A DNA stretch of 33,421 nt from Spirochaetia bacterium (GTDB taxonomy: Bacteria > Spirochaetota > Spirochaetia > CADAEX01): positions 1 to 33,421 of the forward strand of contig JAFZIU010000120.1 of assembly GCA_017554185.1 (NCBI GenBank), given 5' to 3'. The position numbers were made by a program, and so were the translations under genes. How positions within the stretch are numbered: position 1 is the stretch's first letter; the number at the start of each line of letters is the position of its first letter. The notes under the pieces were generated by a model. The model had not been told where the DNA came from, ran no database searches, and saw only the letters and a list, made by a program, of their open reading frames with translations. This document shows positions 2,400-7,053 of this stretch, piece after piece.

Positions 2400-3215
2400 T
2401 TATTCTACAGAATCAAGTATTTTGAGTACAATCTGGCTTGAATTTGCTCCGGCTATGTCTCCGAAATCTTTATAGCTGTCGTGTGCCTTGCCGTCTGCCT
2501 TGTCAGATAAAGCACGGATGACAACAAACGGCTTGTTATAGTTCAAACAGATGACTGCAACCGAAGCTCCTTCCATCTCGCAGGCATATGCGTTGTATTC
2601 CTCTTTAAGCCTCTGCACATATTCTTCGGATGCTATGAACTGGTCTCCTGTGGCAATAGTTCCCTTGAACACATGCTCTTTGCCTACTGTCTCCACAGCT
2701 GCCTTGTATGCAAGCTCCACAAGAGTATCATCACAGTAATAGTATTCACCGGCTGCCCTGCTTATCCCAGGATCGCCCGAAACCCATATGAAACCATCGT
2801 TGCTGACTATACCATAGTCGTGTTCCACCAGCCTGGTGCCCACAATAATATCAAGAACCTGGGTGTCGTCGGCAACTCCACCTGCAATGCCGGTAAACAG
2901 CACCTTCGAGATATTATACCTGTTGAACATGGCTGTAATTCCCGAAGAAGCCCTCACCTTGCCTATTCCCGCCCTTGTGATCACCACATCCTTGCCACGC
3001 AGCGAACCTACGTAATACTTGACACCGCCTATCTGGTCAACCTGTTTTATGTCAGCTTCATCAAGCAGCACCTTTATCTCGTTATCCATAGCCGAGATAA
3101 TTCCTATGCGCTCTTTCTGCTCCAAAGAGGAGCTTTTTCCTTCATTAAGCTTTACACCTATTATTGCAAGCAGTAACACAACAGCCACGACAGGGATAAC
3201 AATATGTTTTTTCAT
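2400..3215 (-). CDS. MTA/SAH nucleosidase with N-terminal membrane anchor or signal
   Basis: The enzyme cleaves the glycosidic bond of 5'-methylthioadenosine or S-adenosylhomocysteine, releasing adenine. The nucleosidase domain (about residues 36-271) has the PNP_UDP_1 landmarks: GIISAMDNEI (Glu46, equivalent to E. coli Glu12), FTGIAGGV, CEMEGASVA (Glu215) and RALSDKAD (catalytic Asp238). Unlike cytoplasmic MtnN/Pfs it is preceded by a lysine-started hydrophobic stretch (residues 4-21) and a short polar linker. This predicts export or membrane anchoring, with no lipobox cysteine. Its ATG overlaps the DUF2442 stop (ATGA), so it is translated with that gene. Other nucleoside phosphorylases are less likely because the MTAN residues are all present. 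Confidence 0.9.
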   Translation of the reverse strand: MKKHIVIPVVAVVLLLAIIGVKLNEGKSSSLEQKERIGIISAMDNEIKVLLDEADIKQVDQIGGVKYYVGSLRGKDVVITRAGIGKVRASSGITAMFNRYNISKVLFTGIAGGVADDTQVLDIIVGTRLVEHDYGIVSNDGFIWVSGDPGISRAAGEYYYCDDTLVELAYKAAVETVGKEHVFKGTIATGDQFIASEEYVQRLKEEYNAYACEMEGASVAVICLNYNKPFVVIRALSDKADGKAHDSYKDFGDIAGANSSQIVLKILDSVE

Positions 3216-3463
3216 GCGTTTTTTCTCTTTCTGACAAGACTCTTTATAAACTCAGGGGCAAAGTCAACACCATTGCTCCATGTTATAGTATCAGCTTCAA
3301 TCCAGAAATTCTTGAATAATTCTATATCCTGCAGTTCACGTATAATTGGGCGGTGATCAGTGGACACCTTCTGTTTAAAATCTGCAATTCCAGATGTTGA
3401 GTCATTGAATTTAACTTTAATCTTATAATCGCCAGCATATTCTGCTGAAACAACATGAATCAA
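3212..3463 (-). CDS. DUF2442 domain protein
   Basis: An 83-residue protein of the DUF2442 family, judged by the order of an N-terminal strand pair (VVSAEYAGDYKIKVKFNDS), GIADFKQKV, and the C-terminal ITWSNGVDFAPEFI. Function is unknown. DUF2442 proteins commonly stand next to DUF4160 proteins, as here (9-bp gap), in two-gene cassettes suspected of toxin-antitoxin or mobile behaviour. It reads into the nucleosidase gene with a 4-bp overlap. A relic of a second copy of its C-terminus is found at 4473-4514. The gene is AT-rich relative to the flanking housekeeping genes. Confidence 0.8.
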   Translation of the reverse strand: MIHVVSAEYAGDYKIKVKFNDSTSGIADFKQKVSTDHRPIIRELQDIELFKNFWIEADTITWSNGVDFAPEFIKSLVRKRKNA

Positions 3464-3472
3464 CTTTTTCTC

Positions 3473-3733
3473 CTATACAAGAGGTTTAATCTTCTTGTAT
3501 TTTCCAGTTTCTTTTAAATTGTTCCAGTTGTCAAGTAATTCTTCTTCATGAAGTTCAGCCCATTCGGTGACAAGTCCGATTATTCTTGGTGGTAGATTAC
3601 CTGCAGAATATTTTAAAGATGATAGTGTAAATTTTCCCCTATACCCATTATATTTTGCATGAAAATGAGGTGGGTTATGTTCATCGTAATACATATGAAT
3701 TGAGATCCCTAAAAAATAACATATTCTCGGCAT
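3473..3733 (-). CDS. DUF4160 domain protein
   Basis: An 86-residue DUF4160 protein: MPRICYFLGISIHMYY followed by the family signature DEHNPPHFHAKYNG, then LVTEWAELHEEELLDNW. The start at 3733 is preferred because AAGGAG (3740-3745) lies 6 bp upstream of this ATG; a TTG five codons further out would put the ribosome site inside the gene. It is the first gene of the DUF4160-DUF2442-nucleosidase group. The NPPHFH motif suggests a metal or nucleic-acid site, but no function is established. Confidence 0.82.
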   Translation of the reverse strand: MPRICYFLGISIHMYYDEHNPPHFHAKYNGYRGKFTLSSLKYSAGNLPPRIIGLVTEWAELHEEELLDNWNNLKETGKYKKIKPLV

Positions 3734-3905
3734 ATACAACTCCTTCAAAATGATTTACCTGTATACACACAAAAAAAGTTATTTTTGCTTCAATTTTTGG
3801 GAAAAAAGTTGGATATTTTTTGTTATGGTAAAAGCGGATTGCATGAGATAAGATGTTTAATTTGTTGTATGTATTTTAGCCCGAAGGCCGATCACTTCAT
3901 TTTTG

Positions 3906-3934
3906 TTGACTTAGAAATTTATAAGTATTAAACT
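3906..3934 (+). promoter_or_regulatory. Promoter of the first Nif11-peptide pair
   Basis: TTGACT (3906-3911), a 17-bp spacer and TAAACT (3929-3934), followed by AAGAAAAGAGGT as leader and ribosome site before the ATG at 3951. The same layout (TTGAC, then about 23 bp, then AAAAGAGGT) recurs before the second pair at 6490-6535, so the two control regions are probably paralogous. Confidence 0.6.
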
Positions 3935-3950
3935 AAGAAAAGAGGTATAA

Positions 3951-4211
3951 ATGGAAAAATTTGATTTAGACTCTTTTACCAAAGAGCAAATAGCCAAAGC
4001 AATGGAGTGTAAAACACCCGAAGAACTCATAGTAGTTGCAAAGAAAGCAGGTGTTGAATTCACAAAGGAACAAGCAGAAGCCTATCTTGGAGAACTTAAT
4101 AATGTAAAACTTGACCCAGAAGCACTTGAAAAAATTGCTGGGGGGACAGGTACTCCCTGTGTCCGCCTTGTTTGTCATAAAGACTTACATTGTTTATTAA
4201 ATAAAAATTAG
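3951..4211 (+). CDS. Nif11-like leader RiPP precursor peptide 1
   Basis: An 86-residue predicted precursor of a ribosomally made, modified peptide. Residues 1-65 form an acidic helical leader of the Nif11-like type: MEKFDLDSFTKEQI, then CKTPEELIVVAKKAGVEFTKEQ. It ends in the double-glycine cleavage motif EKIAGG (Gly64-Gly65). The 21-residue core has Cys70, Cys75 and Cys81, two threonines near the cleavage site, and two histidines. Peptides with such leaders are normally matured by a modification enzyme and cut after GG by a C39-peptidase ABC exporter. Neither is present in this window, so the gene would depend on enzymes encoded elsewhere. The next gene, 8 bp downstream, is a paralog. The name Nif11 does not imply nitrogen fixation. 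Confidence 0.83.
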   Translation: MEKFDLDSFTKEQIAKAMECKTPEELIVVAKKAGVEFTKEQAEAYLGELNNVKLDPEALEKIAGGTGTPCVRLVCHKDLHCLLNKN

Positions 4212-4219
4212 GATTCAAT

Positions 4220-4459
4220 ATGGAAAAACTTGACATAAACTCTTTCACAAAAGAACAGATTGAAAAAGCAAGGGAGTGTAAGACACCAGAAGAACTCATA
4301 GAACTTGCTAAGAAAGCAGGTGTTGAACTTACACTTGAACAGGCAAAGGCTTATTTTGAAGAATTACAAGATGTAGAACTTGACCAGGAAGCACTTGATA
4401 AAGTTGCTGGTGGATTTATGCCTCCTTTCAATTACAGAGTAGAAAAGCGCAGGAGGTAA
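4220..4459 (+). CDS. Nif11-like leader RiPP precursor peptide 2, cysteine-free core
   Basis: A 79-residue paralog of the preceding peptide. The leader is well conserved (MEKLDINSFTKEQIEKARECKTP at the start, then ELAKKAGVELTLEQ) and ends in DKVAGG at residues 64-65. The 14-residue core is unlike the others: FMPPF, then NYRVEKRRR, with no Cys, Ser or Thr and a very basic tail. It therefore cannot form lanthionine, thioether or disulfide rings. It may be a decayed core, a helper or bait leader, or a linear cationic peptide. It is co-transcribed with peptide 1. Confidence 0.8.
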   Translation: MEKLDINSFTKEQIEKARECKTPEELIELAKKAGVELTLEQAKAYFEELQDVELDQEALDKVAGGFMPPFNYRVEKRRR

Positions 4460-4472
4460 AATATAGAAGCCC

Positions 4473-4514
4473 TCATCTCCCCTTTTTGACAAGACTCTGT
4501 ATAAACTCCGGAGC
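4473..4514 (-). pseudogene. Relic of a second DUF2442 gene (3' end only)
   Basis: Minus-strand codons read PEFIQSLVKKGR and then stop. The intact DUF2442 gene at 3212-3463 ends PEFIKSLVRKRKNA. Over the 28 bp around TGACAAGACTCT the two loci differ at only three positions. No upstream part of the gene remains; the frame hits a stop just before the relic. It shows that a DUF2442 cassette once lay on this side of the peptide genes too. Confidence 0.62.
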
Positions 4515-4516
4515 TC

Positions 4517-4575
4517 AGAAAAAGGCACCCCGGTCGGTATTTCAGGCCAAAGGCCGTCCACCGAGCCGGGGTGTC
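4517..4575 (-). terminator. Rho-independent terminator of tRNA-Arg
   Basis: Ten-base-pair outer stem (4524-4533 with 4566-4575, one G-U pair) enclosing an inner hairpin GGCC-AAA-GGCC (4545-4555). On the minus strand it is followed by a run of T (4519-4523). It lies 24 bp past the tRNA 3' end. It could also stop plus-strand transcripts leaving the peptide genes, although the T-tract on that side is poor. Confidence 0.7.
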
Positions 4576-4598
4576 TTATTTCTGGGCTATGTTATGTA

Positions 4599-4671
4599 TG
4601 GACGATGGGGGACTCGAACTCCCGGCCCCTTCCTCCGGAGGGAAGTGCTCTATCCACTGAGCTAATCGTCC
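4599..4671 (-). tRNA. tRNA-Arg (anticodon CCG)
   Basis: A 73-nt cloverleaf on the minus strand. The acceptor stem GGACGAT/ATCGTCC is perfect, the D-stem is GCTC/GAGC, and the anticodon stem CTTCC/GGAAG encloses loop CTCCGGA with anticodon CCG (codon CGG). The T-loop is TTCGAGT. The T-stem has one A-C mismatch (positions 52-62). The discriminator is A and CCA is not encoded, so a CCA-adding enzyme is required. A20 in the D-loop agrees with arginine identity. Confidence 0.93.
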
Positions 4672-4681
4672 AGCACCTAAA

Positions 4682-4710
4682 ACTATATTTAGGCTTAGGG
4701 AAACTGTCAA
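4682..4710 (-). promoter_or_regulatory. Promoter of tRNA-Arg
   Basis: Minus strand TTGACA (4705-4710), 17-bp spacer, TATAGT (4682-4687), ending 10 bp before the mature tRNA 5' end. Near-consensus, as expected for a stable RNA. Confidence 0.85.
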
Positions 4711-4743
4711 GAGTGAATACAGCCCATCCCGCCAGCTACATAT

Positions 4744-5118
4744 TTATTTCTTGATATGCTCTGAAATGCTTACGGCGTATCCGGAGGGTGCGAACAGCAT
4801 GGTAGCCTTTGAAGAACTTGTATTTGTCACTCTCCCTTCTCCACGTGGATTTACAAATCCCTTTGCAATAAAGAAATCGTATGCCTCCTGAAAATTGTCA
4901 ACATTGATTGCTATTCCGGTAAGATCCTTTGGCATATTGTCTGACTTTGCAACAGCAACTCGGTTGCCATTGGCATCCTTCATTACAACAGCAAAGACTG
5001 TTCCCCCTTCAATATCTGTTTTTGTGTGGCGCCTCTCGAATCCGAGTTCCTCAAAAACTTTAATAATAGGCTCGGGCTCTTTTGTTACGATAAGTGGGCA
5101 AATACCTGTAATTTTCAT
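4744..5118 (-). CDS. VOC (glyoxalase/bleomycin-resistance fold) protein 1
   Basis: A 124-residue VOC-superfamily protein and last gene of a four-gene minus-strand operon. It has one full set of paired beta-alpha-beta-beta-beta units: MKITGICPLIVTKEPEPIIKVFEELGFERRH, then VMKDANGNRVAVAK, then a second unit with AINVDNFQEAYDFFIAKGF and MLFAPSGYAVSISEHI (shown in parts). It is clearly paralogous to the proteins at 5133-5501 and 6055-6429, sharing the FEELGFE-RH, MKDANG and NVDNF blocks. Metal-binding histidine/glutamate positions typical of glyoxalase I are not obvious, so a ligand-binding rather than catalytic role is possible. The substrate is unknown. Confidence 0.82.
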   Translation of the reverse strand: MKITGICPLIVTKEPEPIIKVFEELGFERRHTKTDIEGGTVFAVVMKDANGNRVAVAKSDNMPKDLTGIAINVDNFQEAYDFFIAKGFVNPRGEGRVTNTSSSKATMLFAPSGYAVSISEHIKK

Positions 5119-5132
5119 TTTATTCTCCTTTT

Positions 5133-5501
5133 TTATTGTATATGCTGTGAGACAGAAAAAATAGTTCCAGATGGCGACACCATGATGTTGATCTTGGAAG
5201 AGCCTGTATCGATGGTATCATGGGCAGCCTCATGTCTTGCCTTATGGAATCCCCTGGATTCAAGAAACTTCACGGTCTCCTCAAGGTTATCCACGTTCAT
5301 CCGAATCATTGTCCATTCACCGGAGCCTTGTGAAATATCCACATGAAAGCCGTTAGCATCCTTCATCCTGATGTCAGTGACATTATTTTTGCCAATGCCT
5401 TCCTTGGCATGGCGTTTCTCAAAACCAAGTGCCTCGAAAAGAGCAATGACAGGCGCTGAATCTTTGGTTACAATCAGCGGATTAAAAGATGTAATTTTCA
5501 T
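5133..5501 (-). CDS. VOC (glyoxalase/bleomycin-resistance fold) protein 2
   Basis: A 122-residue paralog of its neighbours, sharing FEALGFEKRHAKEGIG, IRMKDANGFHVDIS and IRMNVDNLEETVKFLESRGF. It lies 14 bp upstream of VOC protein 1 and 14 bp downstream of the HdeD-like gene, so it is co-transcribed. Compared with VOC 1 it retains a histidine in FHVDIS (also in VOC 3), which may be a ligand-site residue. It ends in SVSQHIQ, like the QHI/EHI tails of the other two. The reaction cannot be told from sequence. Confidence 0.82.
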   Translation of the reverse strand: MKITSFNPLIVTKDSAPVIALFEALGFEKRHAKEGIGKNNVTDIRMKDANGFHVDISQGSGEWTMIRMNVDNLEETVKFLESRGFHKARHEAAHDTIDTGSSKINIMVSPSGTIFSVSQHIQ

Positions 5502-5515
5502 AGAAAGCCTCCAAC

Positions 5516-6043
5516 CTACAGCAGTCTGTTCACGCCTGCCAGGAAGATGAACCGGTTCACACCGCGGGTGATCAAGGCAAAGCCCACCATGAATGTAATT
5601 GTGAATGCACTGAGTGCCGGATCCACAAAAGATAATACTGCAAACAGCACGGTGAGAATGCCGAGCACCAGGAACATATGCCAGATACTGAACCCTGCCC
5701 TCTTGAAATCAAAGGCATGAATCACTGCCTGAATGCCGGCCATCAGGAGCATTGCTGCAAAAACAAAGGGAATAGCGGCTGCAACAAGCACCTGGTTGGC
5801 AAGAAAAATAATTCCTATAATGATATCAGCAATAGCTGAGAAAAGTACATAACCGCTTCCTGAAACTTCTTTGAAAACAGTAATATAAAAATACAGAGAC
5901 AGGATTCCTGAAATCAGAGTAAAGAACCCTAAAAGCCAAGCCAGTGACAGCAGTGTGGCCCCTGCGCTGGAAAGACACATGATTCCGGCGATAATGAACA
6001 ATGCCCCTGAAAGGCCGATACATACTTTTGAACTTGTGCTCAT
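5516..6043 (-). CDS. HdeD-like (DUF308) membrane protein
   Basis: A 175-residue integral membrane protein with about six hydrophobic helices in two similar halves. Characteristic pieces are GALFIIAGIMCL, GFFTLISGILSLYFY, AIADIIIGIIFL and GFALITRGVNRFIFL. This is the DUF308/HdeD architecture known from E. coli HdeD (acid resistance), but the exact function of most members is unknown. It lies between VOC proteins 3 and 2 with gaps of 11 and 14 bp. A membrane protein embedded in a VOC operon suggests a shared stress or self-protection role, which is inference only. Confidence 0.82.
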   Translation of the reverse strand: MSTSSKVCIGLSGALFIIAGIMCLSSAGATLLSLAWLLGFFTLISGILSLYFYITVFKEVSGSGYVLFSAIADIIIGIIFLANQVLVAAAIPFVFAAMLLMAGIQAVIHAFDFKRAGFSIWHMFLVLGILTVLFAVLSFVDPALSAFTITFMVGFALITRGVNRFIFLAGVNRLL

Positions 6044-6054
6044 ACAATTCTCCT

Positions 6055-6429
6055 TTATTTTATATGCTGGATCAAGTTGATCGCGAAACCGGTGGGTGAA
6101 ATCATGATGGCAGACTTGCCGGTTCTGGTGCCAGTTACTTTGTCTCCATAGAAATTCTTGAAACCATGGGAAACAAGAAGCTTATAGGCTTCATCGAAGT
6201 TATCCACATTCATGCGTACAGCCACCAGATCGGGTCCTGGAGGCAGCGAATCAGGCTGTGATATATCCAGATGGAAGCCGTTTGAGTCCTTCATGCGTAT
6301 ACCGGTTACGTCCATCTCGCCTATTCCTTCCTGCTGATGCCGTTTTTCAAAGCCCAGCTCCTCGAACAGCTTGACGAGTGCTTCTGCATTCCTTGTTATT
6401 ATCTGTGGGTTGAAAGTAGTAATTTTCAT
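6055..6429 (-). CDS. VOC (glyoxalase/bleomycin-resistance fold) protein 3, first gene of the operon
   Basis: A 124-residue VOC protein at the head of the VOC3-HdeD-VOC2-VOC1 operon. Shared family blocks are FEELGFEKRHQQEGIG, IRMKDSNGFHLDIS and VRMNVDNFDEAYKLLVSHGF. It differs from the others in a PDSLPPGPDL loop at about residues 59-68. Tandem paralogy indicates duplication in place. AAGGAG sits about 14 bp upstream of the ATG, which is a long spacing. Its promoter is back-to-back with that of the next Nif11-peptide pair. Confidence 0.82.
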   Translation of the reverse strand: MKITTFNPQIITRNAEALVKLFEELGFEKRHQQEGIGEMDVTGIRMKDSNGFHLDISQPDSLPPGPDLVAVRMNVDNFDEAYKLLVSHGFKNFYGDKVTGTRTGKSAIMISPTGFAINLIQHIK

Positions 6430-6455
6430 TTTGTTAATAACGCTCCTTATTTATA

Positions 6456-6486
6456 ATTATAATATATCGAATAAAAGTCCTGTCAA
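6456..6486 (-). promoter_or_regulatory. Promoter of the VOC/HdeD operon
   Basis: Minus strand TTGACA (6481-6486) followed by TATTAT (6459-6464, 16-bp spacer) or TATAAT (6456-6461, 19-bp spacer). The -35 box is only 3 bp from the divergent TTGACA at 6490-6495, forming TGTCAA-CAA-TTGACA. Confidence 0.7.
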
Positions 6487-6489
6487 CAA

Positions 6490-6518
6490 TTGACATCTGG
6501 TTTTCCATATATTAGATT
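6490..6518 (+). promoter_or_regulatory. Promoter of the second Nif11-peptide pair
   Basis: TTGACA (6490-6495), a 17-bp spacer and TAGATT (6513-6518), then AAAAAAAGAGGT as leader and ribosome site before ATG 6536. Its layout parallels the promoter at 3906-3934. Confidence 0.65.
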
Positions 6519-6535
6519 AAAAAAAGAGGTTTGTA

Positions 6536-6790
6536 ATGGAAAAACCTGACATTAACTCTTTCACCAAAGAGCAGATTGCAATGGCTGCCAAGTGCAAGAC
6601 ACCCGAGGAGCTCATTGAACTGGCAAAAAAAGGTGGCATTGAGCTTACAAAAGAACAGGCAGAAGCCTATCTTGATGAACTTTCAAACTATGAACTTGAT
6701 GAAGCTGCGCTTGATAAAGTTGCAGGCGGAGAGGGTTCTTGCTATCTGAAAGATGGTAGATGCAGTTTCTTGTGCGGTTCAATTAAATAG
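6536..6790 (+). CDS. Nif11-like leader RiPP precursor peptide 3
   Basis: An 84-residue precursor. The leader MEKPDINSFTKEQIAMAAKC, then KTPEELIELAKKGGIELTKE, ends in DKVAGG (residues 64-65) and is nearly identical to that of peptide 4. The 19-residue core begins EGSCYLKDGR and has Cys69, Cys76 and Cys80 plus serines 68, 77 and 82. It starts with the same E-x-S-C-Y pattern as peptide 4 and then diverges. The 14-bp gap and conserved intergenic bases show that peptides 3 and 4 arose by tandem duplication. No maturation enzyme is adjacent. Confidence 0.83.
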   Translation: MEKPDINSFTKEQIAMAAKCKTPEELIELAKKGGIELTKEQAEAYLDELSNYELDEAALDKVAGGEGSCYLKDGRCSFLCGSIK

Positions 6791-6804
6791 TATTGTGGGA
6801 AAAC

Positions 6805-7053
6805 ATGGAAAAACTTGACATTAACTCTTTCACAAAAGAGCAGATTGCAATGGCTGCCAAGTGCAAGACACCGGAAGAGCTCATTGAACTAGCCAAGAAA
6901 GGTGGCATTGAACTTACAAAAGAACAGGCAGAAGCTTATCTTGCAGAACTTGCAAACTATGAACTGGATGAAGCTGAACTGGAAAAAATTGCCGGTGGCG
7001 AAGATTCATGTTATATGAAAAATTGCATCGCATGGTGCGGGATAGTTTATTAG
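6805..7053 (+). CDS. Nif11-like leader RiPP precursor peptide 4
   Basis: An 82-residue precursor. The ATG at 6805 aligns with the starts of the other three copies; an in-frame TTG at 6793 is unlikely. The leader ends in EKIAGG (residues 64-65). The 17-residue core EDSCYMKNCIAWCGIVY has Cys69, Cys74 and Cys78, one serine and no threonine. That makes a classical lanthipeptide with several rings impossible; a disulfide-knotted peptide, or a radical-SAM thioether peptide, would fit better. The ribosome site is weak (GTGGGA), so translation may be coupled to peptide 3. A PspC-like gene follows 18 bp downstream. Confidence 0.82.
   Translation: MEKLDINSFTKEQIAMAAKCKTPEELIELAKKGGIELTKEQAEAYLAELANYELDEAELEKIAGGEDSCYMKNCIAWCGIVY

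What the first reader, a model, noticed from the sequence alone, without database searches (positions are those of the whole stretch)
3951..7053. Four paralogous Nif11-leader peptides with diversified cysteine cores, in two tandem pairs
Leaders of 65 residues are nearly invariant and all end in AGG at the same position. The following 14-21 residues differ strongly. Three cores have exactly three cysteines with different spacings: x4/x5 (peptide 1), x6/x3 (peptide 3), x4/x3 (peptide 4). This pattern of conserved leader and variable core is the hallmark of RiPP families made by one promiscuous enzyme. No modification enzyme or C39 peptidase transporter lies in the window, so the precursors may be served in trans. 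Few Ser/Thr residues argue against classical lanthionine chemistry. The Nif11-like assignment is established knowledge; the natural product is inference.
Basis: partly seen in the sequence, partly recalled or inferred. Interest (0 to 1): 0.78.

Follow-up and report, generated by a model that had tools for sequence, protein, structure and literature searches.

The report
Dispersed Nif11 peptides of rumen spirochaetes
Four small genes in a rumen spirochaete encode raw material for modified peptides; their processing enzymes and exporter sit elsewhere in the genome, as part of a large mix-and-match peptide library that had not, as far as I could find, been described in spirochaetes.

Summary
Four Nif11-leader peptides (3951-4211, 4220-4459, 6536-6790, 6805-7053) lie in two tandem pairs. 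Leaders have 65 residues, are 72-91% identical for the pairs measured (not 'nearly invariant') and end in AGG; the cores differ and Cys spacings are as stated. Leaders of peptides 3/4 are under purifying selection (dN/dS about 0.09). 'Served in trans' is well supported. This 1.61-Mb rumen Spirochaetia MAG has 16 Nif11 matches, one C39 exporter (TIGR03796), its partners TIGR03797/TIGR03794, a B12 radical-SAM methyltransferase (TIGR03975) and several radical SAM/SPASM maturases. All the enzymes are on other contigs, interleaved with Nif11 genes of the same leader type. No LanC-like or YcaO match was found. Six species of the genus have 14-29 Nif11 matches, the exporter and the maturase; the seventh lacks all three. 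Three congeners keep the surrounding gene block without Nif11 genes. In relatives, cores have moved between leaders with breakpoints at the AGG codons, and some precursors carry a Hint (intein-like) domain behind the core. Architecture resembles prochlorosins and NHLM/N11P systems, with radical SAM in place of LanM. Product chemistry, expression and function are untested. New variant of a known kind.

The parts
3951..4211 (+). Nif11-leader precursor 1: leader residues 1-65 (ends IAGG), core TGTPCVRLVCHKDLHCLLNKN
4220..4459 (+). Nif11-leader precursor 2: leader 1-65, core FMPPFNYRVEKRRR (no Cys)
6536..6790 (+). Nif11-leader precursor 3: leader 1-65, core EGSCYLKDGRCSFLCGSIK; core related to cores next to the radical SAM maturase (score 57 vs null maximum 39)
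6805..7053 (+). Nif11-leader precursor 4: leader 1-65, core EDSCYMKNCIAWCGIVY; tandem duplicate of 3
3906..3934 (+). sigma-70-like promoter candidate ahead of pair 1 (TTGACT-17-TAAACT, 9/12); consensus match only
6490..6518 (+). sigma-70-like promoter candidate ahead of pair 2 (TTGACA-17-TAGATT, 10/12); consensus match only, divergent from one for the VOC gene at 6486-6459 on the - strand

Best explanation
The four genes are satellite precursor genes of a genome-wide RiPP library. Proposed course, inferred from homology: each pair is transcribed from its own promoter; the roughly 65-residue Nif11 leader is recognised by the radical SAM/SPASM maturases encoded with the central cluster (contigs C48, C13, C63); these modify the short variable core, most plausibly by thioether cross-links from Cys in the cores that have it, with possible C-methylation by the B12 radical SAM enzyme; the single C39-peptidase exporter (TIGR03796, with TIGR03797, TIGR03794 and a TolC-like protein) cuts after AGG and exports the core. 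Leader and core are separable modules: relatives show recombination at the AGG codons that puts one core behind different leaders. Shown here: sequences, homologies, genomic positions, co-occurrence, selection on the leader, core exchange in relatives. Inferred: leader recognition, chemistry, cleavage, export, biological role.
For: Own genome: 16 TIGR03798 matches on seven contigs. C63 holds in one stretch MATE, B12 radical SAM TIGR03975 (457 bits, cut-off 282), TIGR03794 HlyD (298, cut-off 156), TIGR03796 C39-ABC (987, cut-off 853), TIGR03797 ABC (755, cut-off 709), a periplasmic binding protein, a TolC-like protein, SPASM proteins, a radical SAM/SPASM maturase, a Nif11 precursor and a DUF7005 protein. 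C13 and C48 carry Nif11-rSAM-Nif11 and Nif11x4-rSAM. Co-occurrence in the genus: 6 of 7 species have 14-29 Nif11 matches plus exporter and rSAM maturase; G005 (96% complete) has none of the three. Same leader type next to the maturase: window leaders are 77-83% identical to leaders about 1-3.6 kb from the rSAM gene in other species, and a related leader lies directly before a second rSAM gene on C13. Core 3 matches IKTCYMIDGCAFKCGTLKDC, encoded directly upstream of the maturase in G003/G004, beyond all 100 shuffles. Satellites are general: 64 of 112 full-leader precursors lie on fetched stretches without an rSAM gene, including genes on 118-228-kb contigs of G001, whose only hit to this rSAM is on C5. 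Gain at this locus: G003, G004 and G002 keep the FabH-MarR-SMR / VOC-HdeD block without Nif11. Core exchange: leaders 58-60% identical by protein carry a core whose DNA, with the following about 100 nt, is nearly identical in G001, G002 and G006. Leader constraint: dN/dS about 0.09 for 3/4; mean identity of leaders 0.63 vs cores 0.13 (shuffled cores 0.11) over 97 precursors.
Against: No expression, mass or binding data. The window peptides score below the curated TIGR03798 cut-off. The maturase scores far below every curated radical SAM family cut-off (best 163 vs 525), so its chemistry is not assigned. The model of its N-terminus, where a leader-binding RRE would sit, is low-confidence. Peptide 2 and 15 of 101 short cores have no Cys, so Cys thioethers cannot be the common product. 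The genome is a 131-contig MAG at 94% completeness, so an unseen enzyme nearer the window locus cannot be wholly excluded.
Confidence: 0.83

Rival explanations
1. The window genes are decaying or silent copies left behind by precursor duplication; they are neither modified nor exported.
For: Three syntenic congeners lack them; truncated and broken Nif11 copies exist in relatives (for example L074, L079); cores 1, 2 and 4 have no significant relatives.
Against: All four ORFs are intact; leaders of the recent duplicate pair have dN 0.044 vs dS 0.47, i.e. changes were mostly silent after duplication; promoter-like sites precede both pairs.
Confidence: 0.12
2. The leader domain is a stable small protein with a role of its own (Nif11-like protein) and the C-terminal tail is incidental.
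For: PF07862 Nif11 began as a family of unknown function (PMC2887384); a short Nif11-like tail also ends the Hint fusion proteins.
Against: Family similarity stops at AGG; tails are Cys-rich (10.9% of residues) and hypervariable; the genes co-occur with a double-glycine peptidase exporter and lie among radical SAM genes.
Confidence: 0.05
3. Products are lanthipeptides or azole peptides made by a LanM/YcaO enzyme, as in prochlorosins or TOMMs.
For: These are the classical fates of Nif11 precursors (PMC2887384, PMC10783134).
Against: No LanC-like and no YcaO match in the genome; window cores have 0-3 Ser/Thr.
Confidence: 0.03

Closest known systems
Prochlorosins / synechococsins (ProcA-ProcM)
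   Same: Nif11-type leaders ending in GG, strongly variable Cys-containing cores, large paralogous family, precursor genes spread over the genome singly or in tandem, one enzyme for many substrates (PMC10783134).
   Different: ProcM is a LanM enzyme; here no LanC-like match and radical SAM/SPASM maturases instead; different phylum; cores seen behind different leaders; Hint-fused members.
NHLM/N11P systems of Haft et al. 2010 (TIGR03793-TIGR03798)
   Same: TIGR03798-like precursors with the TIGR03794/TIGR03796/TIGR03797 export trio over cut-off; precursor genes may lie far from enzymes and exporters, as that paper notes (PMC2887384).
   Different: The enzymes in the passages read there are cyclodehydratases or LanM; the terms 'radical SAM' and 'Spirochaet' do not occur in its main text. 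Window peptides score below the TIGR03798 cut-off.
Spliceotide system PlpA/PlpX/PlpY
   Same: Radical SAM enzyme acting on precursors with NHLP/Nif11-type leaders (PMC11002830).
   Different: No splicease-type family among the listed hits of the maturase (best 25 shown); none of the four window cores has an XYG motif, although some relatives' cores do.
Cys-directed radical SAM/SPASM maturases (TIGR04463, CefB, Clo7bot, PapB ranthipeptide; solved relative 5wgg)
   Same: Best-scoring families for the maturase; 5wgg/5why in the PDB at E 1.6e-19.
   Different: All family scores far below curated cut-offs; those systems are not known to me to use Nif11 leaders (own knowledge).

Membership tests
Nif11-like leader RiPP precursors (TIGR03798 / PF07862) | Leader scoring over the curated TIGR03798 cut-off | tested here: not met
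   Window peptides 22.5-27.4 bits vs cut-off 32.3. A sibling in the same genome passes (C13, 33.8), as do Nif11-Hint members (36.6 and 47.3), and the window leaders align with their siblings: homology clear, formal cut-off missed.
Nif11-like leader RiPP precursors (TIGR03798 / PF07862) | Gly-Gly cleavage motif ending family-wide similarity, followed by a short variable core | tested here: met
   AGG at 63-65 in all four; leader identity 0.63 vs core 0.13 over 97 precursors.
NHLM/N11P export system | TIGR03794 + TIGR03796 + TIGR03797 in the same genome | tested here: met
   All three over cut-off on C63.
Prochlorosin (lanthipeptide) family | LanM/ProcM-type enzyme with LanC-like domain | tested here: not met
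   PF05147: no match in the genome.
Prochlorosin (lanthipeptide) family | Ser/Thr plus Cys in the core for (methyl)lanthionine | tested here: inconclusive
   2, 0, 3 and 1 Ser/Thr; three cores have both Cys and some Ser/Thr, peptide 2 has neither.
Azole (TOMM/YcaO) RiPPs | YcaO cyclodehydratase | tested here: not met
   PF02624: no match in the genome.
Sactipeptide/ranthipeptide | Radical SAM/SPASM maturase of a recognised thioether-forming family | tested here: inconclusive
   PF04055 and SPASM domains present; best NCBIfam hits are Cys-rich-peptide maturases but all below cut-off.
Sactipeptide/ranthipeptide | Thioether cross-link in the product | not testable with these tools
   Needs mass spectrometry/NMR.
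RRE-dependent RiPP maturases | RRE domain in the maturase | tested here: inconclusive
   N-terminal strands 23-28 and 33-38 then helices 39-46, 55-63, 72-81 in a low-confidence model (block pLDDT about 30-62 there).

The most novel reading that the evidence does not exclude
The genus runs a modular peptide library: a few radical SAM maturases and one exporter serve 14-29 dispersed precursors per species, and recombination at the AGG-coding junction moves cores between leaders. A sub-class carries a Hint domain directly behind the core, which could release or activate the core's C-terminus, so that the core would be trimmed at both ends.
Probability: 0.3. Interest if true: 0.75.

Novelty: new variant of a known kind. 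Interest (0 to 1): 0.55.

Why it matters
It would give a second, radical-SAM-based example of the prochlorosin strategy (one enzyme set, many scattered substrates), in rumen spirochaetes, a group with few described RiPPs. Core exchange at a fixed junction offers a natural experiment on how leader recognition and core tolerance are separated, and the maturase is a candidate promiscuous peptide-modifying enzyme.

Tried and rejected
Lanthipeptide and azole routes: no LanC-like, no YcaO. Phage or plasmid carriage: no match of peptide 3 in either collection. The VOC genes between the pairs as a linked immunity function: the other VOC genes in the genus are mostly on contigs without Nif11 hits, so no association. 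The shared core AKARLFGCSGVY between own contig C78 and G004/G006 was not used as evidence of transfer: it lies at the end of contig C78 with identical DNA, so a chimaeric contig end is possible. Apparent read-through of TAG in Nif11-Hint genes looks like a frame running into the next precursor, not recoding. Structure of the Hint fusion: model too poor to use (pLDDT 41); no fold search was made. Significance of cores 1, 2 and 4 against other cores: within the null.
Full report
What is there. The window is contig C115 of a 1.61-Mb, 131-contig genome. Four ORFs on the + strand form two tandem pairs with 8 and 14 nt between the genes of a pair. Each has a 65-residue Nif11-like leader ending in AGG and a core of 14-21 residues. 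Leaders are 91% identical within the second pair and about 72% within the first (counted by eye), so 'nearly invariant' should read 'conserved'. In the second pair the leader shows dN 0.044 against dS 0.47, so the coding sequence is under purifying selection; the core dN of 0.375 rests on 17 codons and is only indicative.

What surrounds it. The rest of the contig is ordinary: ACP-FabH-MarR, TctABC-like proteins, Ppx, proline biosynthesis, EF-P, TsaD, Mfd (names are my reading of the ORFs). No maturase, protease or exporter for peptides was found in it. Three congeners keep this block: in G003, G004 and G002 the genes FabH, MarR, SMR, tRNA-Arg, VOC and HdeD lie together, with no Nif11 hit in the stretches fetched. 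The window species differs by the Nif11 pairs, extra VOC genes, a DUF4160/DUF2442 pair, a moved MTAN gene and an inverted tRNA. The pairs are therefore most simply read as a gain in this lineage, though loss in three relatives is not formally excluded.

Where the machinery is. The genome has 16 TIGR03798 matches, one C39 peptidase match and radical SAM maturases on C13, C48 and C63. C63 carries the complete TIGR03794/TIGR03796/TIGR03797 export set and a TIGR03975 B12 radical SAM protein, all over their cut-offs, with a TolC-like protein, SPASM proteins and DUF7005. The 3' ends of C13 and C63 encode overlapping parts of one radical SAM protein, which suggests that they belong to one cluster broken by the assembly; this join was inferred from the translations, not assembled. 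No LanC-like or YcaO match was found.

Why 'in trans' is likely. First, co-occurrence: of seven genomes of the genus, six have Nif11 genes (14-29 matches), the exporter and the maturase, and one has none of them. Six against one on a tree is few events, so this is supporting, not decisive. Second, satellites are general: 64 of 112 full-leader precursors lie on fetched stretches with no rSAM gene. Some of these stretches end at short contigs, but in the less fragmented G001 several lie on contigs of 118-228 kb while its only match to this rSAM is on C5. Third, the window leaders are 77-83% identical to leaders encoded about 1-3.6 kb from the maturase in other species. Fourth, core 3 resembles cores encoded directly upstream of the maturase in G003/G004 and on C48 of the own genome (scores 57 and 41; null maximum 39 in 100 shuffles); cores 1, 2 and 4 have no significant match.

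Modularity. Among 97 non-redundant precursors of the genus mean leader identity is 0.63 and mean core identity 0.13, against 0.11 for shuffled cores. Several near-identical cores sit behind dissimilar leaders. For the core GKPGSCQVR(M)YSSNK, DNA alignment of G001, G002 and G006 shows divergent leaders up to the AGG codons and near-identity from there through the core and about 100 nt downstream; a second case is GK/RHNTEMSGKINAKLYG in G003 and G004. The first case is seen in MAGs from different projects (titles; the match of handles to titles rests on contig lengths), which argues against assembly chimaeras. A similar case in the own genome (C78) is at a contig end and was set aside. No such exchange was shown for the four window genes themselves.

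A side branch. About ten ORFs of 225-260 residues in the genus, one on C130 of the own genome, have a Nif11 leader, a core, then a Hint domain (PF13403 at 35.8 and 40.0 bits for two tested, cut-off 28.4), and in most a truncated Nif11 tail. The leading Cys (CFAGDS-like) is present in all. The usual block-B His position reads TTESQ and no C-terminal His-Asn is seen (the comparison with canonical inteins is my own knowledge), so splicing is unlikely; cleavage at the Cys is possible but untested. In a sample of 297 genomes of the class, fusions were found only in this genus.

Spread. In that class sample TIGR03798 hits at 1e-5 occurred in 11 genomes, six of them of this genus. A rumen Veillonellaceae MAG has a similar arrangement, Nif11 genes with a 59%-identical maturase and a SPASM protein (L061), and its core YCHRTSPCGKVFS resembles YCHRTTPCTEVFR of G001. 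Horizontal exchange is a reasonable guess; no tree was built.

Literature. Dispersed Nif11 precursors served by remote enzymes are established (PMC2887384, PMC10783134). Searches of the held open-access library found two papers with 'Nif11' and 'rumen', neither with a title about rumen bacteria, and none combining Nif11, intein and leader peptide or precursor peptide, Hint domain and RiPP. Most subscription papers are not held, so this is not proof of absence. The spirochaete RiPP clusters tabulated in PMC4289311 are azole-type in Brachyspira.

Verdict. Ordinary in principle, since it is a Nif11 precursor family with remote enzymes; notable in its radical SAM enzymes, its host, the core exchange and the Hint fusions. 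Chemistry and biological role remain open.

Noticed in passing
L022:3-755 (own contig C130); also L070, L047, L074, L080, L084, L098, L102: Nif11 leader plus core fused to a Hint (intein-like) domain, most with a truncated Nif11 tail; leading Cys conserved, block-B His replaced by Gln, no C-terminal Asn.
   Followed up: partly
L069:5101-5334, L080:5708-5947, L104:3718-3957; L086:5928-6170 and L098:455-700: Same core and downstream DNA behind different leaders, with the breakpoint at the AGG codons.
   Followed up: yes
L098:4476-5339: DUF7005 protein whose first about 25 residues match the Nif11 leader; DUF7005 genes recur in the cluster.
   Followed up: no
window 4744-6429: Three VOC (glyoxalase-like) genes and an HdeD-like gene between the Nif11 pairs; congeners have a single closely related VOC gene there.
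   Followed up: partly
window 2400-4672: Relative to congeners the MTAN gene has moved beside SMR and tRNA-Arg(CCG) is inverted, with the DUF4160/DUF2442 pair and Nif11 pair 1 between them.
   Followed up: partly
window 3232-3258 and 4487-4513: A short near-copy of the end of the DUF2442 gene lies behind peptide 2, by eye 24 of 27 bases; possible trace of a duplication.
   Followed up: no
L077:489-767 and L063:9980: Cores VCWTNCPSESSCPHHVCGTVGWENFKGC (spirochaete) and VCWTNCPKEAECPGHACGTVGWENLIG (rumen Lachnospiraceae MAG) are alike across phyla.
   Followed up: no
L023:1-310 (end of own contig C78): Core and following DNA identical to G004/G006 behind a different leader; may be a chimaeric contig end.
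   Followed up: partly
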